IMG/VR virus record: IMGVR_UViG_3300033388_004714
Coordinates: 1 to 29,139 of that record
Length of the DNA stretch: 29,139 bases
Origin: a virus
Strand: one strand, 5' to 3'
Positions 3,499 through 24,719 of this stretch are shown here, piece after piece. A program made the translations under genes and the position numbers. How positions within the stretch are numbered: position 1 is the first letter of the stretch; each line of letters opens with the position of its first letter. Below the pieces are notes generated by a model, which had not been told where the DNA came from, made no database searches, and saw nothing but the letters and a program-made list of their open reading frames with translations.

Positions 3499-3506
3499 CA
3501 AAGATA
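3499..3506 (-). promoter_or_regulatory. Bacteroidota-type -7 box TATCTTTG before the GNAT gene
   Basis: TATCTTTG on the minus strand matches the Bacteroidota -7 consensus TAnnTTTG. It lies in the 23-base gap between the tail gene stop (3515) and the GNAT start (3491). The G of the box is eight bases from the ATG, so a transcript starting at the usual distance would be leaderless or nearly so. No -33 TTTG is evident upstream. Confidence 0.5.
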
Positions 3507-4301: not shown

Positions 4302-5513
4302 TTAAACACATGTGGTTACTGAAGCTATTTCTCCAAAACTGCTTGTTATTGTTAAAAACTTATTAATTGGTGTTCCAGTATTATCTATAAACCTATAATG
4401 GAATGTGGAAGTTAAAGGTGTCGTTCCTGCACTATCACTATAAGCAAAATCTCCAGCTTGAGGATATGTCCCTACACCAGTATGATAATAATTTTGATCT
4501 ATAGTTGTTGTACACACAGCACCAAAAGTTGTACCAACACTTGATGACCATGATTGTAAAGCAGTACATAAACTTTTCGTTACAAGAACACCATCAGTGA
4601 CTTGCAAAGCATAATCAGTTCCTCCAAATGTCGATTTATACCATCCATCAGCAAGTTTAGTGACTCCGTTAGCATCAGTAAAAATCCAATCATATATGGA
4701 TGGATGACCTGCTGATCCATTGACAGGAGCATTATAATAAGTAGTAGATGTTAAACTGGCACATGCCGCAACTTGGGAAGCTTCTACTGTTCCTACAGTA
4801 AATCCAGTTAAAGCCACTGGACATGTAGTAGCAATATTCCATCCTGTTCCAGCACAAGGCCCTTCGATTACAAATGTAGCTGTTGAAGGTGTAGCATTAG
4901 GTTTAGGAATAACCATAATACAATCACCTGGGCCATTTGTAGTTAAATCTACACCTCCTGCAGCTTGATTACTATATGGGCCTAAAGTTACTGGGACACC
5001 TTGATTTACAAAAGCCCCTGCTCCTGAATCATATAGAAATGATGCTCCTGAGACAGTAAGGGAATTACTACCCGAAGCATTTGTAAGAACTAAAGAACAA
5101 CCAGCACCTGAAGTTATTCTTCCAACAACTCCTTGTAAATATCCATAATCCACAGATGAATATTCGGAGACTGTAGCACCATCATATGTCCATGAGCATT
5201 TATCTGGAACATTGATAGGATCAAAGGTGATAATTACAGCACCAGTAGAATCTCCTAAATCAACTGTTAAAGTATATTTTCCTGTAGTTCCTGAACCACT
5301 TATTCCACTACCACAAGGCACAGAACAAGAAACACAACTCCCTGGTTGTAATAATACAGGAGAACTTGGGCCTCCAATAAGTTGTCTGCTAATTCCATTT
5401 TGACTATAATATCCATTAGGTGCAACAGTGGTTAATCCTGCATTGGTATATACCATAGTGGTATTAGCAAAACTAACTCCATCAAAATAATATGTTCCTA
5501 AAACTCCTGGCAT
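4302..5513 (-). CDS. Tail fibre/appendage protein with YY...C modules, 403 aa
   Basis: A Gly/Ser/Thr-rich, Cys-containing secreted-fibre-like protein. Three regions share the pattern aromatic pair, Gly-Asp or equivalent turn, VYT/IFT/YSD, Gly-Tyr, then a C-terminal strand usually ending in Cys. They are residues 7-60 (TYYFDG...VYTNAG...NGYY), 258-316 (TYYNAP...WIFTDANG...GWYK...C316) and 341-402 (NYYHTG...GDFAYSDSAG...TTC402). A Cys-rich middle (60-67, CVSCSVPC) links the first to the rest. The same module ends the 1589-residue protein directly upstream in the operon and the 164-residue protein at 25272-25766. It lies 10 bases after the 1589-residue gene. A surface-exposed, host- or glycan-binding role is inferred; no enzymatic motif was seen. 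Confidence 0.7.
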   Translation of the reverse strand: MPGVLGTYYFDGVSFANTTMVYTNAGLTTVAPNGYYSQNGISRQLIGGPSSPVLLQPGSCVSCSVPCGSGISGSGTTGKYTLTVDLGDSTGAVIITFDPINVPDKCSWTYDGATVSEYSSVDYGYLQGVVGRITSGAGCSLVLTNASGSNSLTVSGASFLYDSGAGAFVNQGVPVTLGPYSNQAAGGVDLTTNGPGDCIMVIPKPNATPSTATFVIEGPCAGTGWNIATTCPVALTGFTVGTVEASQVAACASLTSTTYYNAPVNGSAGHPSIYDWIFTDANGVTKLADGWYKSTFGGTDYALQVTDGVLVTKSLCTALQSWSSSVGTTFGAVCTTTIDQNYYHTGVGTYPQAGDFAYSDSAGTTPLTSTFHYRFIDNTGTPINKFLTITSSFGEIASVTTCV

Positions 5514-5523
5514 AATTTTTTAT

Positions 5524-8500
5524 TTAACATGTTCCTATTTGTATTACTATTCCATCACTATTTACTCTTATATATCCACTTGTATACTTATACCACCCCG
5601 CTGTTAATGTAGTTGTTGTATCACAAATTGTAGAACTATACACAATACTTCCCACCACTGGATATGTTGTTGGGGTAACACTATTAAGAAAATAATAGGA
5701 TTGTGTTAATGGTTGATCACATGCTACACCAATAGACGGATGTACTGTACTTGAATCATAGGCGGTACATGTATAAGTACAATCACAACAAGCCTCCGTA
5801 ACATCTGTGCTATAACACAATGGTTGCCCAGATTGAGTTCTAAAATCATACACCAAATATAAGTATTGATTTCCAATTGGTAAAGAGAATGCTGGAGTAG
5901 TTGATGGTGTCACCGATCCTCTATAAACATCTGGAGCTGGAGAAGTAATTAATCCTGGTAGAATATCAGAGGCTGAACCAGTCAATGTATTAATATCCGC
6001 TACATTATTTGCATATAAGGTATTGCTTGAAAGAAAACTAAATTTATAAGCTGTATTGCCTACATCATAATCATCTGTTCCAATTTTATTTGATTGCATA
6101 AAGAAATCTACTCCATCATAAGGAAATACTCCTATTGATCTAATTCCAGTTTGTGAATCAAAAAGAGATGCCACCGTTGAACTACTTCCAAATACTGCTT
6201 GAGTACTTGCTGTAGGGCTAATTGTAGTGGTATTATTCCATCCATATTCTACATGTATTAAATTATCTACATTTGATCCTGAATTTAAAACTACTTGTAT
6301 CACAGTAATAGCAGTTTCAGTTGGACAGTTTGCTTCTAATGTATATGAAGCTGAGGTACTTGCTGCAGGTGTTACAGTAATATCCGCGGTAGTTGGTGTA
6401 TTTAAAGATTTACTAAAAGTATAATTTCCAGTAGTATTAACTATTGTTACTGGAGTTCCTGCCACCCCATTCCATGTTCCTGTAATCGTTACACTTCCTG
6501 TAACCGTAAATGTAACCGTTGTGGTTGTATCAATAACTTGACCAAAATCAAAAGTAAATGTTTTGGCGGTGCTTGTGGATGAAATGTGTATAGATTGTCC
6601 ACATGGGATAGGTATAGAGGGAACTGGGACTTCTACATCATTTGTACTGAGCACATATTCATCCATGTATGGATCATAAGCACCTAATTTTTGTGTGGTT
6701 AAGGCTGTACTAAATTCATCTCTAAACCAGGATCTCATTCCAGTATCTGAAATAACGGTTACTTCATCACTCTTCAGACTCGCACCAGTTAATTTTATAA
6801 CCGCTCCTCGTTTGGTGTCGGTAAAAAATACATTACTTCCCCACTGAATAAAGCTTTCTGGATTAAAACTTATACCATAATCTTCTATGCGGGCTATTTG
6901 TGTCCCTAAAATTTGGGGAATTGAAGCAATAGCCCCTCCTCCTGTTGCATCAGAAAGTAAATTTTTATTAGTTAAAATATAAGAAATTTTATCTTCTTGT
7001 AAAATCAAAATATCAGTTTCACGCGAATGTAGTTTCATAACTGGGCCATAATTTTGCTCTAAATCTTTGAAATTAGCTAACCCTAAATTAAATTCATTTA
7101 AATTATTCAATCCACTATTACTACTAAAAACACCACTATATGTCAGTCCCGCAAACCTATCGGCTTCTTTATAGTCTTGATTGGATACAGCTAATGTTCG
7201 TTGTCCCATTACAAGACTTTTAGCCGCTAATTTATCTTCTATTTTATAACTTTCTACTCCATTCCCAAAAGCATAACAATCCATAAAAGGTAATAATACT
7301 ATGGCATCTGCCGAAGCAGTTTGAGATTGATCTCCATCGGCAGTTCCTGCTTGATGATACCCTCCTGTAATAGAATAATCTTGTGAAGCATCATAAAAAA
7401 TATCTGCATTAGCATCTGCAGGCTCTGTCTCAAAAACAAATAAATTATTGGCACGTGTAACTGTTATTTCCATTTCAATTTTCGAGTACCCATTTTTTCC
7501 TAAAAAAGTCTTACACCCAGGGATTCCATTTTTAAAACACATATACATTGGTAGAGTTGCATCAATTGTTCCTGTATATCCTGGTTGCCAAAATTGTAAT
7601 ACAGGACGCCATTGGCTAACGGGCATAGCATATGCAGCAGCATCTGATGATCCTACGGGTATATCCGAAGTGGCGGCATCATAAATAACAGAATCAAAAT
7701 ATGGTGCATTAGTTTCATCAGTTGATGACCAATTTCCAGTTGAAATATCTATATTATCTCCCACAAACCAATCATACATATTTGTATAATCTTGAGAAGC
7801 TATAAATTGTCTATCCCATTCATAAGCAAAAGCCTCACATCCCCTCCCCCCTTCACTTCTCCCAAAAAAAATCCTTATATCAATAATAGATCCCTCTGGA
7901 ACAGTATATATTGCATAGGTATCTACTGCAGGTGGGCCTGGATCAGTTGTTGTTGTGAAAATTGGATAGCCCACAAATGGCCTTCTCCAGCTCTCATTAT
8001 CTGACTTATATTTTTTTTCTCCCAAATCTATTACACTATTCTCACCCTCTAAAATTGTAACATTAAAATTTTGACTTTTAATAATCATATATAACCCTGG
8101 AACTTGATGAGAATCTTCTCCTAATTCATTTAAATTTGATAAAAAATCCTCTCCTTCGGCAACAATATCTAAAACCTCACAGGTAGAAAGCTTAAGTAAA
8201 GCACCATTTGCATCTCTTTTAACAATAAGTTTTTGCCCTTTTTCAGCTTTATTTTGATTATCTCCTTCTAACTTAAAATATACATTATTATTAGATGGTC
8301 GAATATATATAAAATTAGAATATATAGTTTCATATCCTGTTTTACTGGGCTTTACTACCATTTTATAGCGAGATGCCCATGATGGAGGTAAACTACTAAT
8401 AGTACATTGTATCTGATTTTTACTCGTACTGTTTTCTGTAGGAATAAAAATAGTGTTATACTCGGACACCAAAACTGTAGAAGCTCGAGCATAGTCATCC

Positions 8501-10293
8501 ATATATACAATACCTGTTTCGAAATCTCTATTGCTATGTAAACTGGCGGTATCTGAAGAAGTTGAAAAAGCAGCAGTTACCGATTCAAATCTAAAAAATT
8601 CAAAAATATCAGTTACTGGTGCATTAGTTTCTCTAAAATTCATTGCTATAGGTTGCAAAGTAAAAGTGTCATCTCCAGGAAGAGTTACTAACTTAAATCC
8701 TTGTTGAGCGGTAGCATCAGTTAAACTACTATTATGTTTTGTCCACCCAGGACAATTAGTTGGAACTGTAAGTGCACAATTAAATTGATCTGTTATTGAT
8801 GTTCCATCAGCACAAGTCGCAATAGTATTAAAATTTGTATTTAACACTGTTCCTAATCGATTAGCAAAAGCGTCACTGGAAATCATATCATATATACTAT
8901 TATAGTCTACAGGCAAAACAAATGATAAATTTAAAGTAACATCTCCATTGGAAAAGCTAAGTGGATAACAAGGATTTAATGAATCATTAGGTGAAGTAAC
9001 TTCAGAACTGGTTAAGTTTAAGCTCAAGGCGAAAGTAGATTCAGCTTTTAATAAAGTTTTAATAGCTGTTAAATCTATTGTTGCTAAAGAGTTTGTTATA
9101 GATGTGTTTACCCCTGAAAGAGTATAATCTATACCTGTGGTTAAAGTAGCATTATCAAGTTCAATAAAATTTATAACTTGATTTATTAATTTAGTATTAT
9201 AATTAACTGAAATATTTGAACCAGTGGCGTTTGTAATATTATAACCATCCACATAATTTCCATAAAACAATCTATTAGCCATAATAGTTTGAGCCTCTGC
9301 GGTTCTTGGAACATTATCATATAATCTTAATAACTCATCAGCTCCTATTACAGTATAAATTTTACTATTAGTAAACACATAAGATTGAGTGCTGTTATCA
9401 CCCCATCCATAATCTTCTTTATTAAATCTTTCAATTACATAAATAACATTGGAATTTGAATCTTTATACAATAAATCAACTTCTTTTACTCTTTTTGATC
9501 CTGTATTAAATGTTACATTAACACTATTATATGCATTTAACATTCCTCCGTTAGTAAAATTATTGGTATCAAACTGAAATAATCCTGGTTGAAATGCTGG
9601 ATTACTAAATAATGAAGTGGCACTATATTCATCATCTAAATATTTATATCGATAAGCGAATGAAATAAATCTATTTTCTAAATAATTTTCTTGTCCATAA
9701 ACATTTTGTAATGTAAGTCCAGGGGTTGGTAAAGTATCAGATGTTCCATATCCTGGTGGTTTAACTATAACATTTACATCTTCTGGGACTAAAACATCCA
9801 CCCCCCCTACAGGATCAGGATAACTTCTGTTTATATTTATTTTTCTTGGAGGATTAAAATCATCTGTCCAAAAAAGCATATTTTCTATTAAATTTACACC
9901 TGTAATTAAATATGTCGTTTGGAAGTTTAATACAGTAGTAGACTGAACATGATAATTAATTGCTGTAGTTGTAGTATTATAAGAAACTATAGAGTCTAAT
10001 CTGCCTACTGTAACAGGATTATTAGGATCATGAACAAACCAATATATAGTTTCTCTCATTCCATCTTCATAACTTCCCACTACTACCGCATCAGTGGATA
10101 GGCTTTGACCTCCATAAGTAAGAGTAGTTAGTTGCTCATTTCCTCTGGAATTTTCAACCGCCCCCATTTCAGTGGTTTCGGTAGATCCTAAACGAACATT
10201 CATCGCATCAACATATTCTCCTGGTGGAAGAAGTCTTTCATCCACCGATTTGTTCATTCGACCTTGTATAAAATTTGTTGTAATTATAGGCAT
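5524..10293 (-). CDS. Large tail protein, P22 gp10-like stabilization/nozzle type, 1589 aa
   Basis: The N-terminal region (1-230) has motifs typical of phage stabilization (P22 gp10-like) or tail-nozzle proteins of short-tailed phages: DERLLPPGEYVDAMNVR (18-34), LIENMLFWTDDFNPPRKI (135-152) and ENRFISFAYRYKYLDDEYS (206-224). The long middle is beta-rich. Around residues 1040-1180 it contains stretches such as ILILQEDKISYILTNKN and GSNVFFTDTKRGAVIKL, which look like propeller blades. The C-terminus is Thr-rich and holds a Cys cluster (EACCDCTYTCTAYDSS) and then a YY...C module ending at the final Cys1589. It starts one base after the tail-tube-like gene. In crAss-like phages the equivalent large proteins form the tail muzzle. 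The N-terminal call is fairly firm; the C-terminal appendage role is inferred. Confidence 0.82.
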   Translation of the reverse strand: MPIITTNFIQGRMNKSVDERLLPPGEYVDAMNVRLGSTETTEMGAVENSRGNEQLTTLTYGGQSLSTDAVVVGSYEDGMRETIYWFVHDPNNPVTVGRLDSIVSYNTTTTAINYHVQSTTVLNFQTTYLITGVNLIENMLFWTDDFNPPRKININRSYPDPVGGVDVLVPEDVNVIVKPPGYGTSDTLPTPGLTLQNVYGQENYLENRFISFAYRYKYLDDEYSATSLFSNPAFQPGLFQFDTNNFTNGGMLNAYNSVNVTFNTGSKRVKEVDLLYKDSNSNVIYVIERFNKEDYGWGDNSTQSYVFTNSKIYTVIGADELLRLYDNVPRTAEAQTIMANRLFYGNYVDGYNITNATGSNISVNYNTKLINQVINFIELDNATLTTGIDYTLSGVNTSITNSLATIDLTAIKTLLKAESTFALSLNLTSSEVTSPNDSLNPCYPLSFSNGDVTLNLSFVLPVDYNSIYDMISSDAFANRLGTVLNTNFNTIATCADGTSITDQFNCALTVPTNCPGWTKHNSSLTDATAQQGFKLVTLPGDDTFTLQPIAMNFRETNAPVTDIFEFFRFESVTAAFSTSSDTASLHSNRDFETGIVYMDDYARASTVLVSEYNTIFIPTENSTSKNQIQCTISSLPPSWASRYKMVVKPSKTGYETIYSNFIYIRPSNNNVYFKLEGDNQNKAEKGQKLIVKRDANGALLKLSTCEVLDIVAEGEDFLSNLNELGEDSHQVPGLYMIIKSQNFNVTILEGENSVIDLGEKKYKSDNESWRRPFVGYPIFTTTTDPGPPAVDTYAIYTVPEGSIIDIRIFFGRSEGGRGCEAFAYEWDRQFIASQDYTNMYDWFVGDNIDISTGNWSSTDETNAPYFDSVIYDAATSDIPVGSSDAAAYAMPVSQWRPVLQFWQPGYTGTIDATLPMYMCFKNGIPGCKTFLGKNGYSKIEMEITVTRANNLFVFETEPADANADIFYDASQDYSITGGYHQAGTADGDQSQTASADAIVLLPFMDCYAFGNGVESYKIEDKLAAKSLVMGQRTLAVSNQDYKEADRFAGLTYSGVFSSNSGLNNLNEFNLGLANFKDLEQNYGPVMKLHSRETDILILQEDKISYILTNKNLLSDATGGGAIASIPQILGTQIARIEDYGISFNPESFIQWGSNVFFTDTKRGAVIKLTGASLKSDEVTVISDTGMRSWFRDEFSTALTTQKLGAYDPYMDEYVLSTNDVEVPVPSIPIPCGQSIHISSTSTAKTFTFDFGQVIDTTTTVTFTVTGSVTITGTWNGVAGTPVTIVNTTGNYTFSKSLNTPTTADITVTPAASTSASYTLEANCPTETAITVIQVVLNSGSNVDNLIHVEYGWNNTTTISPTASTQAVFGSSSTVASLFDSQTGIRSIGVFPYDGVDFFMQSNKIGTDDYDVGNTAYKFSFLSSNTLYANNVADINTLTGSASDILPGLITSPAPDVYRGSVTPSTTPAFSLPIGNQYLYLVYDFRTQSGQPLCYSTDVTEACCDCTYTCTAYDSSTVHPSIGVACDQPLTQSYYFLNSVTPTTYPVVGSIVYSSTICDTTTTLTAGWYKYTSGYIRVNSDGIVIQIGTC

Positions 10294-10294
10294 C

Positions 10295-11209
10295 TTACTT
10301 TATCCATTTATCCTGACCTCTTAAATTCATTAAGAGTCTCCCAGGGTGTATATTACTTAATCTTAATTTAGCATTTCTTAATAAAGAAGATTTGTCTTTT
10401 CTTACTCTATTTACTATATACTCTTGTACTCCAAATCGGCCATTTAAAATAGAAAACCTAATATATGCATACAGATATTCTTCAAATAATTTATTTACAC
10501 TTACTTGAGAATCATCTCCATTTTCCATCCCATCTGATACATATTCTAAAACTATTGAACTTGTTGCAAGTGCAGAACTAAAATAAATACAGCCCGCTTT
10601 TTTGTCTACTCTAAAAGTTGGATTAGCATTTGCGGTTTCTGTATTTAAACCAAATCTTGAACCAACTGTCCAATCAAAATACCAACGCCCATCAACTAAC
10701 CATCCTTCTTCTCCATTAAATATGCTATTAGAATTTAAATATATAGAACGAGTTCCTCTACTTAAATCAATTTGACTCTCTTGTGGGCTTAAAGTGTTTC
10801 CATCTTGATCAAACAAAATATTAGAATTATTATCTTGTAAATATGCCGATGCCCAATTGGTTTGTATGTTTTCACTTAAAGGATATAATATACCATTTTT
10901 ATAGGAAGAAATTCTAACCCAATTAACATAATCAGGTGGGAATACAAATGTGAAATTAGATGTCAAATTTAATTGAAGAACTTTAATTTCTTTCATTGCA
11001 TCATAATTCAATTCTTGAATACCTCTCTTTGCATAAAATATAGCCTTGTTTCTGTCTAAATTATTTATCAATTCTAAATCACCCGCATACATTAACATAA
11101 AGTTATTTACTATATCTTGTAATGACACATATTGGTATGAGCCCCAGTTGGAATCAGTAGGAGTAGTGCCATTATTTTCGTAATATGTATATTGTGTTAT
11201 ATATGCCAT
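10295..11209 (-). CDS. Tail tubular protein A-like / P22 gp4-like ring protein, 304 aa
   Basis: The start has a short N-terminal arm, then a helical core with LQDIVNNFMLMYAGD and IFYAKRGIQELNYDAMKEIK (residues 54-73), followed by FVFPPDYVNWVRISSYKNG. The C-terminal part has SSIVLEYVSDGM and a long helix pair (NKLFEEYLYAYIRFSILNGR, then VNRVRKDKSSLLRNAKLRLS). This arrangement of an early helical A-x-x-x-I-Q-E-L segment, a central beta barrel and a late helical bundle is that of head-to-tail adaptor or tail-tube A proteins (T7 gp11, P22 gp4). It lies between the connector-like gene (one-base gap) and the large stabilization protein, which is the expected order. The length is somewhat above T7 gp11 (196 aa), in keeping with larger podoviruses. 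Confidence 0.78.
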   Translation of the reverse strand: MAYITQYTYYENNGTTPTDSNWGSYQYVSLQDIVNNFMLMYAGDLELINNLDRNKAIFYAKRGIQELNYDAMKEIKVLQLNLTSNFTFVFPPDYVNWVRISSYKNGILYPLSENIQTNWASAYLQDNNSNILFDQDGNTLSPQESQIDLSRGTRSIYLNSNSIFNGEEGWLVDGRWYFDWTVGSRFGLNTETANANPTFRVDKKAGCIYFSSALATSSIVLEYVSDGMENGDDSQVSVNKLFEEYLYAYIRFSILNGRFGVQEYIVNRVRKDKSSLLRNAKLRLSNIHPGRLLMNLRGQDKWIK

Positions 11210-11210
11210 C

Positions 11211-12221
11211 TTATGTTTGTATTTGGTTGTCTTGTACTATTTCTTGTTGTCCAAAATTATACACATCTTTTTCTCTTATTTCGATGCCTACATATTGACA
11301 AATCTTTGCTACTAATCCAGGTTCATCAGATAGGGGTAATTCAAAATTTTGATAATCCACTGCGGAGTCATCAAATAATGGCTCACCTCCTGGTAAAGTT
11401 ACATACGTCCAGTTAGGAGATAAAGGGTATCTAATATATTGTGTTTTAACTGCACCTTTTTGTCTAATAGTGCTTGGATAAACTGTTACTGTATTTCCTG
11501 TAAACGATGTATTACCTGCTTGTATATTAGAACTTGCTCCTCCTAATACATATGCTGGAAATTGAGTAGTAGGAGCAGTTAAATTAGAACTGGTTAATAA
11601 ATAAATTTTATGTTGTTTTACTCTTTCTACTTCAGTTATATTTACATTATTATATATAACATAATTTTCGCCAGTAGTTATAATATCTTCACTTAAACTT
11701 AAAGTTGTTGCATCATCGACCGCAGTAACATATGCTTGAGAAATTGGAGCTGATGTAGTATTTACTACTATGCTTCCAACTGCTGGAGAAATTAAAAATT
11801 CTGCACCACCTGTAAGAGGTACAAAACCCCCTGCGGCATCAATTAATTTGTATCCTTGAGCGGCAGTAGTTGTCCCTGCATATAAAGCTGTAGGATAATA
11901 AAAAAGTTTATTTATAATATAATAATCGGCAGGAAGATTATAAAGATTAGCATTATTTAAATTAGCTACTGTTTGGTCTAAGAAGATTTCAGCCGAAAAC
12001 ATATCTATCACCTCTTCTAATCCTTTTAAAAGATCAGCATATCCTTGATTAGATGCACTTACTTTTTGTTTATTAAGATAGTTATTGTATTGATAGAAAT
12101 AATCTTCAAATAAATCCATCTGTGCTTGTTGACAATATAAATTAAAATCTTGAGGAGATATATAGCCATAATTGTTTTTATTAGCTATGGCTAATACTGT
12201 ATTTCTTATATCATTTATCAT
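11211..12221 (-). CDS. Head-tail connector/ring-like virion protein, 336 aa
   Basis: The N-terminal helix bundle reads NTVLAIANKNNYGYISPQDF and QAQMDLFEDYFYQYNNYLN (to residue 50), then a conserved-looking LYNLPADYYIINKLFYY (93-109). A small beta-domain, GSIVVNTTSAP...AYVTAVDDATTLSLSEDI...YVIYN (149-191), seems inserted before the rest of the fold. The last third includes KTQYIRYPLSPNWTYV (259-274), a motif common in phage head-tail connection proteins, and a helical end. It is the first gene behind the box at 12239-12246 and leads the tail operon (gaps of 1, 1, 10 and 10 bases downstream). I infer a neck/ring function from position between capsid and tail-tube genes. No specific family name can be assigned with certainty. 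Confidence 0.72.
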   Translation of the reverse strand: MINDIRNTVLAIANKNNYGYISPQDFNLYCQQAQMDLFEDYFYQYNNYLNKQKVSASNQGYADLLKGLEEVIDMFSAEIFLDQTVANLNNANLYNLPADYYIINKLFYYPTALYAGTTTAAQGYKLIDAAGGFVPLTGGAEFLISPAVGSIVVNTTSAPISQAYVTAVDDATTLSLSEDIITTGENYVIYNNVNITEVERVKQHKIYLLTSSNLTAPTTQFPAYVLGGASSNIQAGNTSFTGNTVTVYPSTIRQKGAVKTQYIRYPLSPNWTYVTLPGGEPLFDDSAVDYQNFELPLSDEPGLVAKICQYVGIEIREKDVYNFGQQEIVQDNQIQT

Positions 12222-12248: not shown

Positions 12249-12283
12249 AAAAAAAAAAGAGGCTTAATTTTTTAAACCTCTTT
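12249..12283 (-). terminator. Rho-independent terminator after the small paralogue pair
   Basis: On the minus strand AAAGAGG (12283-12277), a T.G pair, TTAA, a four-base A loop, TTAA and CCTCTTT (12262-12256) form a 12-pair hairpin. The run of T continues to 12249, giving ten consecutive T overlapping the end of the stem. It begins 23 bases after the stop at 12307. This is a clear intrinsic terminator by inspection. Confidence 0.85.
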
Positions 12284-12306
12284 CAATTTTAAGTGTAATA
12301 TGATGA

Positions 12307-12861
12307 TTATGCTGTAGCTATATCAAGTACATAACTTGAAGGTACTGCCCATTGATACTTAGCTTCTGGCCACGCCAGTATTAATGAAGATTCTATAACA
12401 TCTTCAAAGCCATCTCTCATTTCTTCATTTCCTGCAGCAACCGCAGCATGAGTTATTCTGACTTTTATACCAGAAACTCCACTATATTGTATATCTACAC
12501 CACTATTAATAGCATCTCCTTCACTTTCTACAAGAACTACACCATCGGTAGCAACTAATTGATTAGAAGAAGAAGAAATGTCATAAATAACATAAGTTTT
12601 CGCAGTATTTAAACCAGTACCTAAAGTAGCACCGATAGCGGTTAAAGATAATATTGTAGCACTGTCAATAGCAGCAACAGTATACATTCTATTGTCAGCA
12701 GTATCCCATACTACATCTCCAACTACTGTACCATCAGTATCAAAAGCTGCAGATGAATCACGCAGTTTATCGTTACCGACTTCACTTGCTCCATCTGTTG
12801 TTCCACTTGCGACTGTGTTTTGAACAGGGATACTTGCATATTTTTGCATTGCACTATTCAT
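12307..12861 (-). CDS. Small virion-associated protein, long paralogue with inserted domain, 184 aa
   Basis: This protein is a larger relative of its upstream neighbour. Residues 5-13 (MQKYASIPV) match MEKYLKIPV of the neighbour. Residues 101-163 (QLVATDGVVLVES...VRITHAAVAAGNEEMRDG...ILAW) align with the neighbour's QIVSVTNVKLVEQ...VTLTHAALGAGYETMRDE...ATGW. Between them, residues about 20-96 are extra and contain GDVVWDTADNRMYTVAAIDS, ILSLTAIG and YVIYDI, resembling residues 149-191 of the connector protein. Start is ATG 12861, two bases after the previous stop; ATG 12849 is an alternative that matches the paralogue's start. The isolated two-gene transcript beside the capsid gene suggests an abundant virion component such as a decoration protein, which is inference. 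Confidence 0.72.
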   Translation of the reverse strand: MNSAMQKYASIPVQNTVASGTTDGASEVGNDKLRDSSAAFDTDGTVVGDVVWDTADNRMYTVAAIDSATILSLTAIGATLGTGLNTAKTYVIYDISSSSNQLVATDGVVLVESEGDAINSGVDIQYSGVSGIKVRITHAAVAAGNEEMRDGFEDVIESSLILAWPEAKYQWAVPSSYVLDIATA

Positions 12862-12863
12862 GC

Positions 12864-13142
12864 TTATGCTATAGCAATTCCGCTTACCGCAGAACTTGGG
12901 TTATAATCATAAGAGACTGCTGTCCAGCCTGTCGCAAGGGCATCAAGGATAACATTTTGTACTTCATCTCTCATGGTTTCATATCCTGCTCCTAAAGCAG
13001 CATGAGTAAGAGTAACAACTTTACCTGAGCCATAAGCTAAAGTTACAGTTGTAGTAGAAGCTTGTTCTACTAATTTTACGTTAGTTACAGATACGATTTG
13101 TTTTTGTTCGCCTGTAACTGGGATTTTTAAATATTTTTCCAT
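12864..13142 (-). CDS. Small virion-associated protein, short paralogue, 92 aa
   Basis: I place the start at ATG 13142 (MEKYLKIPV). A longer frame exists to 13178, but its first codon is TTG and lies inside the TATCTTTG box, so it cannot be the translated start of a transcript from that box. The protein is beta-rich (TNVKLVEQASTTTVTLAYGS), followed by THAALGAGYETMRDEVQNVI and a C-terminal helix/strand ending SGIAIA. Its sequence is found again, split by an insertion, in the next gene. It has its own promoter-like box and shares a strong terminator with its paralogue, implying a separately controlled and perhaps abundant product. A capsid decoration or head-fibre role is possible; no family was recognised. 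Confidence 0.72.
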   Translation of the reverse strand: MEKYLKIPVTGEQKQIVSVTNVKLVEQASTTTVTLAYGSGKVVTLTHAALGAGYETMRDEVQNVILDALATGWTAVSYDYNPSSAVSGIAIA

Positions 13143-13175
13143 AATAATAATAAGATTTTGGGTTAAACAATACCA

Positions 13176-13183
13176 CAAAGATA
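13176..13183 (-). promoter_or_regulatory. -7 box TATCTTTG of the small paralogue pair
   Basis: TATCTTTG on the minus strand lies between the stop of the 261-residue gene (13193) and the ATG at 13142. It matches TAnnTTTG of Bacteroidota sigma-A promoters. A start about seven bases downstream would give a leader of roughly 25 bases. It is preceded by a T-rich stretch, without a visible -33 TTTG. Confidence 0.55.
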
Positions 13184-13192
13184 CAAAAAAAA

Positions 13193-13978
13193 TTAATTAT
13201 TTTGTAAGCGTTTTAAGAGGAGCTTATAGAGTTCTACACCTTCATCACTTTGAAAATGTGATGCCACAATAAAATATGGATCTTCACCATAAGGAACTGT
13301 TAAAAGCTTCTTTTTGTTTTTAGGTAAATTAAAATAAACATCTTTTTGACCATTTTTAAAAGCTAAAAGGTTGTTTTCAAAAAATCTAAATACTGTGTCT
13401 TGCAAATCTAACATAGGATCATTAAGGGTATCCATAAAATCTTCTGGATGTTCTTTAGCATAAAGCATAATGTCTCTTTTAATTTCTACCGAACTTAATT
13501 TGTCAGTTTGACTTCCTAAAAGAACTCTTGCTACCGCGATTCTTTTATCATGTGATAATTCACGAGCTAAAACTTGAGCTTCTAAACCTGCTTCTACCAC
13601 TTCTAAATGATCAATTGCATCTTTTTCTTTATTTATCTCCTCAAAAACCATATTTTTTTGTGGATGATAATGTAAAAATTGTTGAAGTACTTGATTGTTT
13701 TTAGGAACAAATAATACACCATCCTCAAAAACTATTGGTTCTAATATTGCACTTCCATCTTGCTCATCTTCAAATGGGCTTTTTTGATTTCTTGCATATC
13801 TTAAAGGTTTATTAATTCCTTCTTTTTCATCAAAATATAATAAGGGGTGTCGAGAAGAATTTCTTGATGCTAACATATATGATAATGGAGCACTAAGTTT
13901 CGTTAATTTGTAGAATTTATCTACTAAAGGCTCTCTTTTTTGGGTGACCTTTTTAATAAGGGTTGTTTCTTTTTTCAT
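13193..13978 (-). CDS. Conserved virion-region protein of unknown function, 261 aa
   Basis: A hydrophilic, mixed alpha/beta protein. Its most distinctive part is RHPLLYFDEKEGINKPLRYA followed by NQKSPFEDEQDGSAILEP (residues 43-80), then VFEDGVLFVPKNN. The second half is helical (EAGLEAQVLARELSHDKRIA, then IKRDIMLYAKEHPEDFM) and ends with FNLPKNKKKLLTVPYGEDPY and a C-terminal helix. I believe similar proteins occur in other marine phages near the capsid genes, but cannot check that here. It lies downstream of the capsid terminator and upstream of the next promoter box, and its own 5' gap shows no TATCTTTG. It may therefore be made from terminator read-through, giving much less product than the capsid protein. 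The function is unknown. Confidence 0.68.
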   Translation of the reverse strand: MKKETTLIKKVTQKREPLVDKFYKLTKLSAPLSYMLASRNSSRHPLLYFDEKEGINKPLRYARNQKSPFEDEQDGSAILEPIVFEDGVLFVPKNNQVLQQFLHYHPQKNMVFEEINKEKDAIDHLEVVEAGLEAQVLARELSHDKRIAVARVLLGSQTDKLSSVEIKRDIMLYAKEHPEDFMDTLNDPMLDLQDTVFRFFENNLLAFKNGQKDVYFNLPKNKKKLLTVPYGEDPYFIVASHFQSDEGVELYKLLLKRLQNN

Positions 13979-14051: not shown

Positions 14052-15518
14052 TTATGCATCTTGAAATAAGAAGAAGTTGTTTGCACCTAAAGTACATACA
14101 CATCTTTCACTCAAGAAGTTCACTTCCATTGCATCCAGATCAGAAGTTCTTGCACCACCAGCTGAGCCAGTTATCCAAGTTTTATAACGTCTGTCTTCAG
14201 TTTCAGAAGCTCTATATCTAACATGTAAGAATGGTCTTTTCGCATTCTTTCCTAATACTTGATCGTATACTGTAGTTGAACCAGCTGGGACTAAAAGTCC
14301 ATTAACTGCTCCACCAACAATACCACCTCTCATAGTAGGATCATTAAGATATTTCCAATCAGACTTATAGAAGTCATAACCTCTTCTAAATCCTGTAAAT
14401 CCAAGATTTAAGGCCATTTCCTCATCATTATCAAATAAACCATATGATGTGCCACCTGCTCCATAAGAGTTTTGTGAGGCTAACATATCATCTATATCAA
14501 ATGAGAAGTTTCTATCAACGAAAATAACATTTTCTTCAATAGATCCTTGTTTGTCAAGTCTTGAAATAATGTTGTCAAACTGAGAAAGAGTTTGTGGATT
14601 ACCTCCACCAAACACATTACCTCTATTTTCAACAACATAGAAAATTCCGTCAGAACCATTTAGATCTGCTAAAGATGCTGCTGCGGCTACTCCTTGGAAG
14701 AATCCACCTGCACCTGAAGCTACATCCGCTGGGACTGCTTCAATCATTGCTGTTTCTAAATAATCTTCAAATCTTAGCCTTGTTTCATGCTCAGATTTTA
14801 GATACCATAAGTATCCAGTTGCTCCATTTTCAGTTGTAACTTCTACCCATCCGATTTGAGCCATATCAGAACCAGAGACAGAATATTTGTCTTTGATAAT
14901 AATTGGTTTGTTATCGAAGAAGAAGTCATCAGCATCATTTGAGCCAACCATTCCAAGAACACCTTTGTTAAATTCAGAACCATAAATAAATATATCACAA
15001 GCTACTGCTGCTGCCATAGTTTGACCTCCATTCTCATAGTAATCTACTACTATTTGGTTTGGAGCTGCTGTGGTAGGAGCTGTGCTAATAACAGCTTTAT
15101 TAGATAGAGCTGATCCTGGAGTTCTATCCGAGATCATAACTGTTTGTCCTACTCTAAGAGCCGCTAAATTTGGTGTCGCTGGGATTGTAATCGCAGGATT
15201 AAAGTTAGTTAGGTTATTAGGTATAGTCCAAGTAGCTTGATCTGATGCTGCTGCTGCACCAGAGGTACAACTTTGATACTTAACATGTAGTCTTCCTTGT
15301 TCTGCCCATTTAATAAGGTCAGAATTAGAAGGCATTTCAGCGCCTACCATTCTTAAGAATGATGCTACTGATCGATTTCCATATCTTTCAAATTCTTTTT
15401 CATAAGTATCGGGTAGATACTGATTCAAGAAGTCAAAATTATTGATATAGTTTGTAGACAACGGTACTTGTTGACTACTGGGTTGCAAATCGTACCCTGG
15501 GGTTACATTTACTGCCAT
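14052..15518 (-). CDS. Major capsid protein, 488 aa
   Basis: Identified as the capsid protein from size, position directly after a scaffold-like gene and after terminase and portal, an isolated strong terminator, and sequence character. The N-terminus (NNFDFLNQYLPDTYEKEFER, residues 26-45) is a helical arm followed by SVASFLRMVGAEMPSNSDLI. Further on are WVEVTTENGATGYLWYLKSE, a helix (RFEDYLETAMIEA) resembling an HK97-fold spine, and FGGGNPQTLSQFDNIISRLD. The C-terminus is EVNFLSERCVCTLGANNFF. The length agrees with crAss-like and related podovirus capsid proteins (about 490 aa). The leader upstream of ATG is a tandem A/T repeat (AATTAAAAATTAAAAATT) with no Shine-Dalgarno. The HK97 fold is assumed from the family and is not demonstrated here. 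Confidence 0.85.
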   Translation of the reverse strand: MAVNVTPGYDLQPSSQQVPLSTNYINNFDFLNQYLPDTYEKEFERYGNRSVASFLRMVGAEMPSNSDLIKWAEQGRLHVKYQSCTSGAAAASDQATWTIPNNLTNFNPAITIPATPNLAALRVGQTVMISDRTPGSALSNKAVISTAPTTAAPNQIVVDYYENGGQTMAAAVACDIFIYGSEFNKGVLGMVGSNDADDFFFDNKPIIIKDKYSVSGSDMAQIGWVEVTTENGATGYLWYLKSEHETRLRFEDYLETAMIEAVPADVASGAGGFFQGVAAAASLADLNGSDGIFYVVENRGNVFGGGNPQTLSQFDNIISRLDKQGSIEENVIFVDRNFSFDIDDMLASQNSYGAGGTSYGLFDNDEEMALNLGFTGFRRGYDFYKSDWKYLNDPTMRGGIVGGAVNGLLVPAGSTTVYDQVLGKNAKRPFLHVRYRASETEDRRYKTWITGSAGGARTSDLDAMEVNFLSERCVCTLGANNFFLFQDA

Positions 15519-15538: not shown

Positions 15539-16687
15539 TTAAACTTTATTAATACTTCTAATCTTGAGTCCTCTTCCACTACTTGATGATTTGCTTTCTA
15601 CAGCTCTAATTTTTAATCCATCTTTGGTGACCAATCGAGGTGATTTTCGTATGTCCATGTTAATGTTTTTTGATTTTTTTGCAACATTATCAACAACACT
15701 TGAAGCACCTTGATCATAAAAAAATTGAGCAAACTTTTCAGGGTTAATAGCTACTGCTAAAGCCCTATGGTATTTAACTGGATCAGAGATTACACCTTCT
15801 TTATCCACATATTTGCCGATAAAATTGTTTACATCTTTCTGCACATTAAATAATTCTTGTGCAGTACCAGGTTTAAATGTTAAATTTTCTTCTCCTATTT
15901 GGAAATCAAAACCTTTGAAATCCGTTGAAAAAACTTTTTGAGTTTCATCCAGGAAGTATTTATATTTTTTACCATTTATTTCCTCAATAGATTTCGAGTC
16001 CTCAATATACTTTTTGTAAGCATTAAGACTTTTTTCTTGATCTTCTGATAATCCACCCCCGCTTGACTCAAGAGGAATTTTATACTTATCTTTTTGTTCA
16101 TTAAAAAACTTCTTCGCTTTCGCAAGTTCTCGTTTTTTAGCCAACTTTTTCTTCTTAACTTCTTTTGGTTCATCCAGTTCTTCATCAAAACTAAATTTTT
16201 CCTCTAAGATGTCTTGAACATCTATTGCATCTAAACCTTCTTCGTTTACTGCAACATAGTCAGCAAGTAAAGCATCATCATCCATAGTATTATAGTCTTT
16301 TTGTAAATTATAAAAGTCACTAATACCACGGCCTGTTTCCTGCTTATACTTTAAATACGCCGAAACATCTTCAGGTAAGGGTTCATTTGCCTCTTTTTCC
16401 GCAAACAATTCATCAACTGAATTTATTTCTTTGTTATATCTATTCTTCAAAAAAGAAAGAACGTTTTCATCATTTAACTCTGATGAGGGAGTTTTTTCTT
16501 GTTCTTCTGTTGTTTCTTCTTTTGGTGTATCCTCAGATGTATCCTGTGGAATACTTACTTTTTCAGCTTCAACAACAGTTTTTTCTTCTGTTTCTAAAGA
16601 ATCAGCATGTTTCTCCAACAACTGTTCCTCTATTTGGGCTTTTGATTTATTGTCAGTGCCTTCAACTGCTCTTACTTTTATTTCCAT
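15539..16687 (-). CDS. Probable capsid scaffolding protein, 382 aa
   Basis: The first 130 residues are extremely acidic and Glu/Thr/Ser-rich, with no aromatic core. The middle contains a Lys-rich helical block (KEVKKKKLAKKRELAKAKKF, about residues 177-196) and helical segments. The C-terminus is basic. This charge layout, and location immediately before the major capsid gene (20-base gap), is that of a scaffold. A short motif recurs: EIKVRAVE at residues 2-9, GLKIRAVE at 357-364 and GLKIRSIN at 373-380, the last two separated by a Ser/Gly linker. Repeated basic terminal motifs could contact capsid or portal. It is the first gene of a capsid transcript from the box at 16704-16711. No protease motif was seen in or near it. 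Confidence 0.65.
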   Translation of the reverse strand: MEIKVRAVEGTDNKSKAQIEEQLLEKHADSLETEEKTVVEAEKVSIPQDTSEDTPKEETTEEQEKTPSSELNDENVLSFLKNRYNKEINSVDELFAEKEANEPLPEDVSAYLKYKQETGRGISDFYNLQKDYNTMDDDALLADYVAVNEEGLDAIDVQDILEEKFSFDEELDEPKEVKKKKLAKKRELAKAKKFFNEQKDKYKIPLESSGGGLSEDQEKSLNAYKKYIEDSKSIEEINGKKYKYFLDETQKVFSTDFKGFDFQIGEENLTFKPGTAQELFNVQKDVNNFIGKYVDKEGVISDPVKYHRALAVAINPEKFAQFFYDQGASSVVDNVAKKSKNINMDIRKSPRLVTKDGLKIRAVESKSSSSGRGLKIRSINKV

Positions 16688-16703
16688 TAGATTTGATTTT
16701 TTA

Positions 16704-16711
16704 CAAAGATA
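16704..16711 (-). promoter_or_regulatory. -7 box TATCTTTG of the scaffold-capsid transcript
   Basis: TATCTTTG on the minus strand lies in the 63-base gap before the scaffold start at 16687, 17 bases from the ATG. It matches Bacteroidota TAnnTTTG. Together with the terminator at 14001-14036 it defines a scaffold plus capsid unit. No -33 TTTG is apparent. Confidence 0.55.
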
Positions 16712-16750: not shown

Positions 16751-16993
16751 TCATTTTTTCTTTTTCTTTAGCACTTTTTTCGCAACTACTTTCTTAATCA
16801 CATTAGCTGCAAGTTTTAATAATTTACCAGTACCACCCGTTATCAGTCCTATCGAACCACTTGAGGCTAACATTTTACCTTTAGGATACTTTTTTATAGT
16901 GCTTTTCTTTTTTGTTTTTTTTATTTTTTTAACTGGAATAACTTTTCTACGTACTACTCGAGTATTGTCTTTTTTTATTTTTCTTCCACTCAT
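16751..16993 (-). CDS. Very basic small protein, 80 aa
   Basis: Nearly a third of the residues are Lys or Arg (GRKIKKDNTRVVRRKVIPVK at the N-terminus and a Lys run at the end). They flank a short hydrophobic, Gly/Ser-rich middle (LASSGSIGLITGGTGKLLKL, residues 42-61) that could be a membrane-active or packing helix. It starts five bases after the stop of the 112-residue basic gene and is the last gene of the packaging/portal transcript. No catalytic motif was seen. Such composition suggests binding to packaged DNA or to the acidic scaffold encoded next, but this is inference. I do not recognise a family. Confidence 0.62.
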   Translation of the reverse strand: MSGRKIKKDNTRVVRRKVIPVKKIKKTKKKSTIKKYPKGKMLASSGSIGLITGGTGKLLKLAANVIKKVVAKKVLKKKKK

Positions 16994-16998
16994 AACTA

Positions 16999-17337
16999 TT
17001 ATCTATTTTTCTTAAAACTACGATATTTTTTCATTGCTTCTCTTCTATCTTTTCCTTTTTTCCAACTTCCAAAAGCAAATTTTTCAGCTCTCCTTTTTTT
17101 CTTAAATTCATAAACTTCTCCAGCAGCTATAGCTTCTTTAAAGTTTTGTGACTTTTTTTTCCCTTTTTTATCAAAGGTTATAGTAGGAGCTGCATAATAT
17201 CTTTTTTTACCTTTTTTGTTTGTTCCTTCATAGTCTGCCATTCTATGAGTTTCTGTTCTTCCATCAGCTAATTTATTTCCTACTCCTTTTCTAATGTTTC
17301 GGGCATGTCTTTTTCTATTTCTCTTTACAACAGACAT
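16999..17337 (-). CDS. Basic portal-adjacent protein, 112 aa
   Basis: The start is ATG 17337, one base after the portal stop codon. A longer frame to 17352 begins with TTG inside the portal gene, so I reject it. The N-terminal 30 residues are Arg/Lys-rich (VKRNRKRHARNIRKGVGN). Then come HRMADYEG, KKRYYAAPTITFD, EAIAAGEVYEFKKKRRAEKF and AFGSWKKG. The pattern H-x-M, a Y-x-A-x-P-T stretch, GEVYEF and a final F-A-x-G-S-W-K is one I associate with small domains encoded beside podovirus portal genes. The function is unknown. The high positive charge suggests contact with DNA or with the acidic scaffold during assembly. Confidence 0.65.
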   Translation of the reverse strand: MSVVKRNRKRHARNIRKGVGNKLADGRTETHRMADYEGTNKKGKKRYYAAPTITFDKKGKKKSQNFKEAIAAGEVYEFKKKRRAEKFAFGSWKKGKDRREAMKKYRSFKKNR

Positions 17338-17338
17338 A

Positions 17339-19774
17339 TTATCTTGGTTCAAATTCTGCTAAATCGAAACCATCTAAACTATCTTCGTTAGATTCAAAAT
17401 CTATAGGAGGTAAATTTCTTTTCTTTTGCTCAATCATTTTAGAGGTTTGAGTAGACTGTTGACTAATTCTACCATCTTTAGATTTTTCTCTTTCATTTTC
17501 CCTGTCTTGTAATCCTTGTTGCTCTGCTCCTTTTAATTGCATATTGAATTTAAACTCTTCAGTCATTAATGCTAATTTAAGGTCTTTTTCGGCTGTAAGT
17601 TTGTGAATAGAAAACTCACTTTTTGCTTTTTCTAATTGCATTTTCCCTTGAATTTCTGTTTGATTTTTTTGCATTTCTAATTGGGCAGCAGCTTGTTGTG
17701 CCTGCATTTGTTGTTGAGCAGCCATTTCTTGCTCTTGCATTGCTTGTTGTTGTTCAGCTATTTGTTTTTGTTTTCTTTTCAATTTAAGAAATTGATTAGC
17801 CATTTTTATATTATGGATTTCACGAATATCAATAGCATCTTCTAAGTTAATATTTTCTTTAGATAAAGCCATTTGAATATTTTGTTCCAACATAGCTTTT
17901 TGCTCTTCATCTGGAGATAATTCTAAAAATATCCCAAAATCATAAAGATATAAGTCTTTAATATCTTCTAATATACCTACATTATATTTGCCTAATTGGT
18001 GAACAAACTCATCAGAATAATCAGAATATTCTAAAATATCAGCAGTTCTTATAGCTAAACATTCGGCTATGGTTCTTGTAATATATAAGCTGGCATCTAA
18101 AATATGGCGGGTAGCTACATTAGAATTTAATGCGGCTAATTTTTGTACTCCCACTAATGAATTTGGATCTGGAGTAGAACCATCACGTGCCTCATTTAAT
18201 CCAGTTACTTGTCTTATCATGTCTAAATAATGATTGTAATTCCCAATAAGCATTTGTAATTTGGTAGAACCACTATTTGAAGTAAGTTGTTGAATTGGAA
18301 TTTTAGCATTATTATATTCTCCATCTCCCGTATAACTTCTTCCTACAACACTACCTGTTTGAAAATATAATCGTAAAGCGTCTTCAGGATTATAGGCTGC
18401 TCCATTCCCTAAATCTACTTCACTTAATCCATCAGCATCTATAAACACACCATCTGGAACAACCCTTGAAACTACTTGTTGAATTTTTAAATGAGTGATT
18501 TGAATTAAATCAGCAAAAGGAATCATTCTTCTTGTTAAGGATTCTAATATTCCTTTATAACTTCGTGGTGCACAAGCAACATAATTTGGAAAAGCAAATT
18601 GGTTGGCAGATTTGGGGCGCACCATATTTTCTCCTAATTTCCATTGAAGCAAAATATTAGTTCCCATTACCATCACCCCATCATACCATACATCAATTCT
18701 TTTTTCAATTCTTTCAAATCCACCTTCATCCATCATTTCTTGTGGTGGATTAAACTGATCATCTTTTTCGACAGTTTTAAATGAACCATCGGCCATTTTT
18801 TTCTTTTTATAAACAAATGTATGAGTGGTTTTATAATTAAAATAAAGCAAAGTGGCTGTATCTCTATAAAACATACTGTTTTCGTAAAACTGTGCAGTAT
18901 TAAAATACTGATACCAAGATTGACTGCTTTTAGCAATTTCCTCTAAATCTTCCTTGGTTAAGGTTGGATCTATTTTAATAAGCTCTGTCATTGGAACAGT
19001 CTTTATTTCTCCCCAATAAAAACAATCTTTAAAATGAGGATCTTCGGTATAACTATAGACTACATTTGCAGGATCTACATAATCTACTTTTACTCCTTGA
19101 CCTAATAAAAATTCGTGTTTTGTAATTCCTATGCCAACCGTAGTAAGATCATAGTCTACTCTTTTTCTAATATCATTATAATGATTTTCATCCAACAATG
19201 TATTAATAGCTTCTTCTGCTGCTATTTCCACCGCAGGTTTATATTTCATAGACATAAACAACTCTAACTCATCAGGATTTGAAGGAAGTTCTTCTTCTGG
19301 AATAGTAAATGTGTCAACTCCAAATTGTTCATTTATCTCTGCAAGAAGTGGTTTTGCAGCCATATCTGCCTCAACCATTTTTTGAAATTCGTTTCTTTTT
19401 TCTGCGGATAACCCATCTTCTGCATATGCCCTAACTCTAAAAAGTCTATCAGACATTCCATTAACTACAATATCAACAAATTTGGGAATAATTGGAACTG
19501 GAGTCCAATCTAAATTCAGATAACTTAAATCGCCATCTATTGCTAATTCATTTTTATATTTTGCGATTGATTGCTCTCCACGAGCATATAATCTTAATTT
19601 TTCAAATTCTGCCCATTGGCTATAAAACCTACAAGTTCCACTATCTCTACGAAACCATTCGTATTGGATAGCTTGACCAATTTGTAGTCCATATTCTTTT
19701 GTGTCTTTGATTGAATCAGAAACAAATTGATCAGGAAATGCAGCAAGTTTGACGTTTATATTTATTTGCTTCAT
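17339..19774 (-). CDS. Portal protein, 811 aa
   Basis: Assigned as portal from its size, its ATGA overlap with the large terminase gene and its domain layout. The N-terminal region (about 30-130) has IQYEWFRRDSGTCRFYSQW and AKYKNELAIDGDLSYLNLDW. The middle has beta-rich wing-like sequence with MNEARDG-type loops (TGLNEARDGSTPDPNSLVG). A long Gln/Ala/Glu-rich coiled coil spans about 660-765 (IAEQQQAMQEQEMAAQQQMQ onward), as in P22-like portals whose C-terminus forms a barrel. The C-terminus is acidic. The length is close to that of P22 gp1 and crAss-like portals (about 725-830 aa). It forms the dodecameric DNA entry channel and the motor docking site, by family knowledge. No frameshift or truncation was seen. 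Confidence 0.85.
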   Translation of the reverse strand: MKQININVKLAAFPDQFVSDSIKDTKEYGLQIGQAIQYEWFRRDSGTCRFYSQWAEFEKLRLYARGEQSIAKYKNELAIDGDLSYLNLDWTPVPIIPKFVDIVVNGMSDRLFRVRAYAEDGLSAEKRNEFQKMVEADMAAKPLLAEINEQFGVDTFTIPEEELPSNPDELELFMSMKYKPAVEIAAEEAINTLLDENHYNDIRKRVDYDLTTVGIGITKHEFLLGQGVKVDYVDPANVVYSYTEDPHFKDCFYWGEIKTVPMTELIKIDPTLTKEDLEEIAKSSQSWYQYFNTAQFYENSMFYRDTATLLYFNYKTTHTFVYKKKKMADGSFKTVEKDDQFNPPQEMMDEGGFERIEKRIDVWYDGVMVMGTNILLQWKLGENMVRPKSANQFAFPNYVACAPRSYKGILESLTRRMIPFADLIQITHLKIQQVVSRVVPDGVFIDADGLSEVDLGNGAAYNPEDALRLYFQTGSVVGRSYTGDGEYNNAKIPIQQLTSNSGSTKLQMLIGNYNHYLDMIRQVTGLNEARDGSTPDPNSLVGVQKLAALNSNVATRHILDASLYITRTIAECLAIRTADILEYSDYSDEFVHQLGKYNVGILEDIKDLYLYDFGIFLELSPDEEQKAMLEQNIQMALSKENINLEDAIDIREIHNIKMANQFLKLKRKQKQIAEQQQAMQEQEMAAQQQMQAQQAAAQLEMQKNQTEIQGKMQLEKAKSEFSIHKLTAEKDLKLALMTEEFKFNMQLKGAEQQGLQDRENEREKSKDGRISQQSTQTSKMIEQKKRNLPPIDFESNEDSLDGFDLAEFEPR

Positions 19775-24679: not shown

Positions 24680-24711
24680 TTTATTTTATTTTATATTAAA
24701 CATTAATCCTA

Positions 24712-24719
24712 CAAAGATA
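24712..24719 (-). promoter_or_regulatory. -7 box TATCTTTG before the packaging cluster
   Basis: TATCTTTG on the minus strand sits in the 53-base gap between the methyltransferase-like gene (stop 24733) and the 92-residue gene (ATG 24679). It matches TAnnTTTG. From here gene spacing is six bases or less, or overlapping, down to 16751, so one transcript could carry all genes from the coiled-coil protein to the basic 80-residue protein. Confidence 0.52.

What the first reader, a model, noticed from the sequence alone, without database searches (positions are those of the whole stretch)
12864..13142. Two adjacent small paralogues, one with a domain inserted after its ninth homologous residue
MEKYLKIPV and MQKYASIPV open the two proteins. 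QIVSVTNVKLVEQ / QLVATDGVVLVES and THAALGAGYETMRDE / THAAVAAGNEEMRDG align after that. The second protein has about 75 extra residues between these parts. This looks like tandem duplication plus domain insertion within a two-gene transcript that has its own promoter box and terminator. It may be an undescribed decoration or head-surface protein pair.
Basis: seen in the sequence. Interest (0 to 1): 0.62.

Follow-up and report, generated by a model that had tools for sequence, protein, structure and literature searches.

The report
Phage paralogue pair with plug-in domain
A marine crAss-like phage carries two neighbouring copies of a small, apparently undescribed protein, one with an extra beta-barrel threaded into a hairpin; relatives carry zero to four copies with zero to three such barrels, so it is probably a modular virion accessory protein, although no virion evidence exists.

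Summary
P1 (12864-13142, minus strand, 92 aa) and P2 (12307-12861, 184 aa from the conserved ATG) are paralogues: BLASTP E 6e-12, core-profile hit E 7e-16. AlphaFold2 models show matching secondary-structure order. P2 carries about 82 extra residues in the first beta-hairpin. The insert is a beta-barrel resembling insertion domains of phage tail, baseplate and capsid proteins (Z 7 to 7.7). It is homologous to an insert in the next gene, a ring-protein-like gene.

The window is a crAss-like podophage fragment related to Elemovirus and Callevirus. In IMG/VR relatives the place between the 13193-13978 and ring genes holds 0 to 4 copies of the small protein, carrying 0, 1, 2 or 3 barrels. One uninserted copy is commonest. 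The array has its own conserved Bacteroidota-type promoter box (59 of 63 loci). In some relatives the cassette has moved beside phage groEL or terL.

No Pfam or solved-structure family, and only a marginal match to an uncharacterised PHROG. Most likely a virion surface accessory protein. Capsid placement is inferred, not shown, and tail placement is a serious rival.

The parts
12864..13142 (-). P1: 92-aa uninserted form (MEKYLKIPV...); predicted order b1 (4-7), b2 (15-18), b3 (22-26), b4 (32-37), b5 (42-47), helix (56-70), b6, b7
   Evidence: ORF; AF2 pLDDT 93.9, pTM 0.82; relatives
12307..12861 (-). P2: 184-aa inserted form (180 aa from MQKY at 12849); likely start is ATG 12861, 2 nt after the P1 stop
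   Evidence: ORF; upstream start conserved in relatives; AF2 pLDDT 78.9, pTM 0.77
12574..12819 (-). Inserted beta-barrel domain of P2 (residues about 11-92 of the 180-aa form)
13175..13183 (-). Bacteroidota-type -7 promoter-like box TATCTTTGT, 33 nt upstream of P1
   Evidence: TANNTTTG within 70 nt of the first P gene in 59 of 63 non-identical loci, 3.8 expected
12255..12284 (-). Intrinsic terminator-like hairpin with U-tract just after P2
12238..12246 (-). Promoter-like box TATCTTTGT of the next unit (ring gene)
11211..12221 (-). Adjacent gene, ring-protein-like (R), phrog_14543 virion structural protein; weakly crAss001 gp34-like
   Evidence: E 2.8e-35; profile (E 0.012)
11652..11879 (-). 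Copy of the same insert domain inside R (residues 115-190)
   Evidence: hhalign E 2.5e-18, 38% identity; HMM E 2.5e-24
13193..13978 (-). Upstream flanking gene W (261 aa), weak profile match to crAss001 gp33; no promoter box upstream of it in relatives
14052..15518 (-). Major capsid protein homologue (context)
   Evidence: phrog_13704; 44-64% identical to structural proteins of Elemovirus, Maribacter phage Panino and MW202828

Best explanation
P1 and P2 belong to a small virion accessory family of crAss-like phages of Bacteroidota. SHOWN: they are paralogues; P2 holds a predicted beta-barrel module in the first beta-hairpin of the shared core; the same module sits in the adjacent ring-protein-like gene; copy number and module number vary across relatives; the pair looks like its own transcription unit. 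INFERRED: the 85-95-residue core is the docking base that attaches to the capsid shell, made late and in many copies from its own promoter. P1 occupies the plain sites. P2 occupies a subset of sites and holds its barrel out from the surface, adding a binding or stabilising module. The b1-b2 hairpin acts as a plug-in point because the barrel's first and last strands run on from core strands b1 and b2, so modules can be added (three barrels plus a GGxGY domain in L207) without disturbing the base.
For: Paralogy and insertion. Secondary-structure order of the core is the same in both models; the model strands E4-17 and E85-100 of P2 run from core into insert. The insert's nearest solved folds include barrels in virion proteins: VP1 capsid 9in6 Z 7.7 (2.6 A, 76 aligned), lambda tail tip 8k35 Z 7.3, Mystique tail tube 9n71 Z 7.0, JBD30 baseplate 8rk3 Z 6.9; by sequence, related inserts sit in other phage proteins that match PHROGs labelled structural or tail fibre. 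Context: between MCP-W and ring-ring-muzzle genes, all annotated structural in cultured relatives except W. Copy and module variation. Own promoter box in 59 of 63 loci, later P genes 5 of 49, W 0 of 58. Purifying selection with the insert looser than the core (dN/dS 0.27 vs 0.17). Absent between W and R in MW202828, Elemovirus and phi38:1, as expected of an accessory protein.
Against: No member is in a cultured phage, so there is no proteomics or image of it on a virion. The gene sits next to ring-protein genes and shares its insert with one, which suits a tail site as well. The core has no significant solved-structure match (best PH-like Z 5.2, within background). In some relatives the cassette lies beside groEL, far from the capsid genes. 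Middling Z values for small barrels are common, and F1-ATPase barrels match almost as well.
Confidence: 0.45

Rival explanations
1. Tail or neck accessory proteins: the P core docks on the ring or collar of the short tail, next to the ring protein encoded downstream, and the barrels of P2 and of the ring protein pack together or present receptor-facing surfaces.
For: Adjacent to the ring and muzzle genes; the same insert domain is in the ring-like protein (E 2.5e-18); barrel look-alikes are mostly tail tube, tail tip and baseplate domains.
Against: Ring insert and P insert do not track each other tightly: 21 loci have only the ring insert and 6 only the P insert (not corrected for kinship). 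P has its own promoter box and terminator, separate from the ring operon, and can move away from the tail genes.
Confidence: 0.25
2. Assembly or internal head protein (for example a head-completion factor, portal-vertex protein or ejected cargo) rather than an outer decoration.
For: Position next to the capsid gene and to W, which is weakly similar to crAss001 gp33; in some relatives the gene is beside phage groEL; crassviruses store cargo proteins in head and tail (PMC10172136).
Against: Number of copies and of modules varies widely and the gene is missing at this place in cultured relatives, which is unusual for an essential assembly factor.
Confidence: 0.17
3. Not a virion protein: a small late-expressed factor acting in the host cell, such as counter-defence or host modulation.
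For: Own promoter box; the cassette relocates with it, sometimes to non-structural neighbourhoods.
Against: Commonest position inside the structural module and an inserted domain whose relatives are virion proteins.
Confidence: 0.13

Closest known systems
T4 Hoc (PMC10385173)
   Same: Conserved base domain plus a variable string of small beta modules; some phages carry two Hoc paralogues of different module number.
   Different: Ig-like modules strung end to end at one terminus in Hoc; here the modules are threaded into the first hairpin of the core. No sequence relation was found, and capsid binding of P is untested.
crAss001 capsid auxiliary protein gp36 (PMC10172136)
   Same: Two-domain plan in which one domain is inserted in a PH-like domain; gene a few places after the capsid gene. 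The P core also draws weak PH-domain matches (Z up to 5.2).
   Different: 333 aa against 92/184; the inserted domain is FliD/FliC-like, not a small barrel; no profile similarity, though that test was too weak even for the capsid proteins.
Beta-barrel insertion domains of phage virion proteins (VP1 capsid, lambda tail tip, Mystique tail tube)
   Same: Predicted fold of the P2 insert (Z 7 to 7.7).
   Different: The carrier protein here is a 90-residue core without a solved relative; sequence identity 4-16%.
Homologous insert of the neighbouring ring-like protein
   Same: Same domain by sequence (E 2.5e-18).
   Different: Sits in a ring-protein-like gene, not in the P core.
phrog_15734 (94 aa, unknown function)
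   Same: Matches 12 of 55 uninserted members, best E 3e-4.
   Different: For P1 the match covers 37 residues only; membership of the PHROG could not be inspected.

Membership tests
Crassvirus-like structural module | Muzzle protein | tested here: met
   PF25731 crAss_MUZ 40.4 bits, cut-off 27, ORF 5524-10293
Crassvirus-like structural module | Gene order terminase, portal, capsid, ring, ring, muzzle | tested here: met
   PHROG hits in order; same order in Callevirus phi38:1 and Elemovirus; ring identity of R and R2 rests on order and weak profile matches
Crassvirus capsid auxiliary protein gp36 | Sequence homology to gp36 | tested here: inconclusive
   hhalign E 0.18 for P core vs gp36, but the positive control (capsid vs gp32) also failed
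Crassvirus capsid auxiliary protein gp36 | PH domain contacting the capsid protein | tested here: inconclusive
   weak PH-like matches only, Z 5.2 or less; no contact data
Decoration proteins (Hoc type) | Present on the outside of the virion | not testable with these tools
   no cultured carrier found in the phage collection
Decoration proteins (Hoc type) | Conserved base with variable modules | tested here: met
   core profile plus 0, 1, 2 or 3 insert-domain hits per protein; that the core is a capsid-binding base is not tested
P2-insert domain family | Significant profile match to the ring-protein insert | tested here: met
   hhalign E 2.5e-18; HMM E 1.3e-19 in P2 and 2.5e-24 in R
Capsid-protein I-domain | Significant profile match of the insert to the E-loop I-domain of the window's capsid protein | tested here: inconclusive
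   hhalign E 0.14 over 15 columns, not significant

The most novel reading that the evidence does not exclude
A new scaffold family of crassvirus-type virions: a roughly 90-residue core whose first hairpin is a dedicated acceptor for beta-barrel modules shared with the tail ring protein, giving phages a movable cassette that tunes copy number and length of surface projections, possibly in the role of the auxiliary capsid protein of gut crassviruses.
Probability: 0.25. Interest if true: 0.65.

Novelty: new variant of a known kind. Interest (0 to 1): 0.47.

Why it matters
If the core is a virion docking base, this locus is a natural series (no gene, one plain copy, plain plus one barrel, plain plus two or three barrels) for testing how phages build and vary surface modules. 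It lies in aquatic crAss-like phages, whose virion surface proteins are largely uncharacterised outside crAss001. It also shows one small domain in two adjacent structural genes of the same phage, which makes domain exchange inside a virion module directly testable.

Tried and rejected
Chance similarity: rejected. A link between the P2 insert and the capsid protein's own I-domain: suggested by a shared VG-x-x-V motif, but not significant (E 0.14). Homology of the core to crAss001 virion proteins: nothing significant, but the single-sequence test was underpowered. Solved structures by sequence: nothing meaningful. Foldseek against PDB for the core: no E under 0.5, so a new fold is neither shown nor excluded. 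Independent insertions at the same site: the tree wants about 4 changes, but one origin is not rejected (AU p 0.149). Hosts or prophages in bacterial genomes: no relative in the genome collection with the patterns used. The five small ORFs at the same place in Maribacter phage Panino are not P homologues. TANNTTTG alone is not enriched in the whole window (48 vs 46); only the longer TATCTTTGT and the position upstream of genes are informative. Very divergent array members (L029 117 aa, the L030 181-aa C-part, L034 96 and 184 aa, the C-parts of the 264-266-aa forms in L029, L169, L175, L205, L206) did not reach E 1e-3 with the core profile, so their kinship rests on position, the N-terminal motif and, where present, the insert.

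Full report
WHAT THE WINDOW IS. The window is a whole IMG/VR record of 29,139 bases, classed as a virus. The structural genes run on the minus strand: terminase (19771-22047), portal (17339-19774), a 382-aa protein (15539-16687), capsid protein (14052-15518), gene W (13193-13978), P1, P2, a ring-like gene R (11211-12221), a second structural gene R2 (10295-11209) and a 1589-aa muzzle-like protein (5524-10293). The muzzle passes the Pfam cut-off for crAss_MUZ, and PHROGs name most of the others. The nearest annotated capsid proteins are in MW202828 (64%), Maribacter phage Panino (52%), Elemovirus (44%) and Cellulophaga phages. It is therefore a fragment of a crAss-like podophage of Bacteroidota.

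THE OBSERVATION. P1 (92 aa) and P2 (180 aa from MQKY) align by BLASTP at E 6e-12 with the short N-terminal motif as a second piece. A profile of 55 uninserted relatives finds the P2 core at E 7e-16 and places the break at core position 9-12. P2 probably starts 12 bases earlier than MQKY, at 12861, because the four-residue extension recurs in relatives, often overlapping the P1 stop by one base. About 82 residues are inserted.

STRUCTURE. AlphaFold2 with alignments of locus proteins gives P1 pLDDT 93.9 and P2 78.9. The core elements fall in the same order: b2, b3, b4, b5, helix, b6 and b7 of P1 at 15-18, 22-26, 32-37, 42-47, 56-70, 77-79 and 86-91 correspond to P2 97-100 (end of a long strand), 104-108, 115-122, 129-135, 141-157, 164-166 and 174-179. 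In P2 the first strand (4-17) and the strand 85-100 run from core into insert, so the insert extends the first hairpin. The core has no significant solved relative; second-look matches are PH-like at Z up to 5.2, which is background level. In the library of predicted viral proteins it matches small uncharacterised proteins (TM up to 0.97), one of which is 174 aa with only an 84-column stretch aligned, as an inserted form would be. The insert matches beta-barrels in VP1 capsid, lambda tail tip, Mystique tail tube, JBD30 baseplate and chi tail tip at Z 6.3-7.7, but also the N-terminal barrels of F1-ATPases; the fold is a common one.

THE SAME DOMAIN NEXT DOOR. Profiles of the P2 insert and of residues 115-190 of R match at E 2.5e-18 with 38% identity, and a joint profile finds only these two proteins among window ORFs of the coding strand. 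R proteins of some relatives (for example L030-L034) and of Elemovirus are shorter and lack it. The capsid protein's own E-loop domain does not match significantly.

NATURAL VARIATION. Across 91 non-identical W-to-R stretches (the sample was seeded by P and R, so counts are not frequencies) the place holds: plain P plus P with one barrel (35), one plain P (34), two to four genes in several arrangements, and P with two or three barrels (L029, L169, L175, L205, L206 two; L207 three). R insert and P insert occur in all four combinations (41 both, 23 neither, 21 only R, 6 only P). L207 encodes a 402-aa protein with the N-terminal motif, a GGxGY-type domain, three tandem barrels and then the rest of the core. 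L027 and L141 carry a GGxGY-type extension at the C-terminus instead. A wider search found 326 relatives in IMG/VR, of which the best 80 mostly show a single plain P between W and R. In five contigs whose capsid protein is 75-78% identical to the window's, P lies directly upstream of a phage groEL-like gene far from the capsid gene, and in L223 it lies near groES-like and terminase genes; for two of these (L229 and L223 records) the W-R gap was read and holds no P. A much more distant 81-kb relative, with only 33% muzzle identity and no detectable capsid match, also has P.

TRANSCRIPTION. TANNTTTG is the -7 element known for Bacteroidota promoters (own knowledge; the consensus appears in PMC6847099 and PMC9723704, found, not read in detail). 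It lies within 70 nt upstream of the first P gene in 59 of 63 loci (3.8 expected), of later P genes in 5 of 49, of R in 48 of 63, and of W in 0 of 58. In the window the box is at 13175-13183 and a terminator follows P2. Most relocated copies keep the box, and L222, L223 and L224 keep much of the same leader. The cassette therefore seems to move as a unit with its promoter.

EVOLUTION. On a tree of cores, the inserted P2 proteins of the window's lineage form one clade (100/100) on a long stem, and P1 proteins group with plain copies (86 columns, many forks unresolved). This fits one old duplication followed by fast change of the inserted copy. One origin of insertion is not rejected (AU p 0.149). 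dN/dS is about 0.2 for P1, P2, W and R; 0.27 for the insert and 0.17 for the P2 core.

HOW IT MOST LIKELY WORKS. The plan resembles T4 Hoc, a conserved capsid-binding domain with a variable string of modules, sometimes in two paralogues per phage (PMC10385173), and, in having a domain inserted in a small base, the crAss001 auxiliary capsid protein (PMC10172136). I infer that the core docks on the virion and the barrel projects. Capsid is my first choice because of the separate promoter, the variable copy number and the dispensability, but a tail-collar site is credible because of the shared insert with the ring protein. No step of docking is shown.

MEMBERSHIP. I do not file P under Hoc, gp36 or any named family: virion location was not testable, and homology tests were negative or underpowered.

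Noticed in passing
L224, L228, L229, L232, L237 around 5001-7000: The small P gene lies directly upstream of a phage-encoded groEL-like chaperonin gene (groES-like gene nearby in L224 and L232) in close relatives of the window phage.
   Followed up: partly
L207:3706-4914: 402-aa P relative with a GGxGY-type domain and three tandem barrel domains threaded between the N-terminal motif and the rest of the core.
   Followed up: partly
L027:1557-2360, L141:3989-4792: P2 forms with an extra C-terminal GGxGY-type domain, similar in motif to the one inserted in L207.
   Followed up: no
window 16751-17352 (minus strand): Two small, very lysine/arginine-rich ORFs (80 and 117 aa) between the portal and the 382-aa gene; the second overlaps the end of the portal gene. 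Function not examined.
   Followed up: no
window 25769-27820 (minus strand): 683-aa protein of repeated TTYTAGSGLSLVGTVF / ITGNAGTATLLQTARTI units ending in a region that looks like an S74-type intramolecular chaperone; probable tail fibre (by eye only).
   Followed up: no
window 3499-3506, 16703-16711, 24711-24719 (minus strand): Further TATCTTTG(T) boxes just upstream of genes, suggesting a map of transcription units.
   Followed up: partly
L151-L174 (for example L157:3911-4444): A different family of 160-180-aa phage proteins (MAYPKITVNTG...) carries the same insert domain at residues 33-97, so the module travels between unrelated small phage proteins.
   Followed up: partly
L205:1468-1799: One P gene appears split by a frameshift relative to the near-identical L206; sequencing error or pseudogene.
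   Followed up: no
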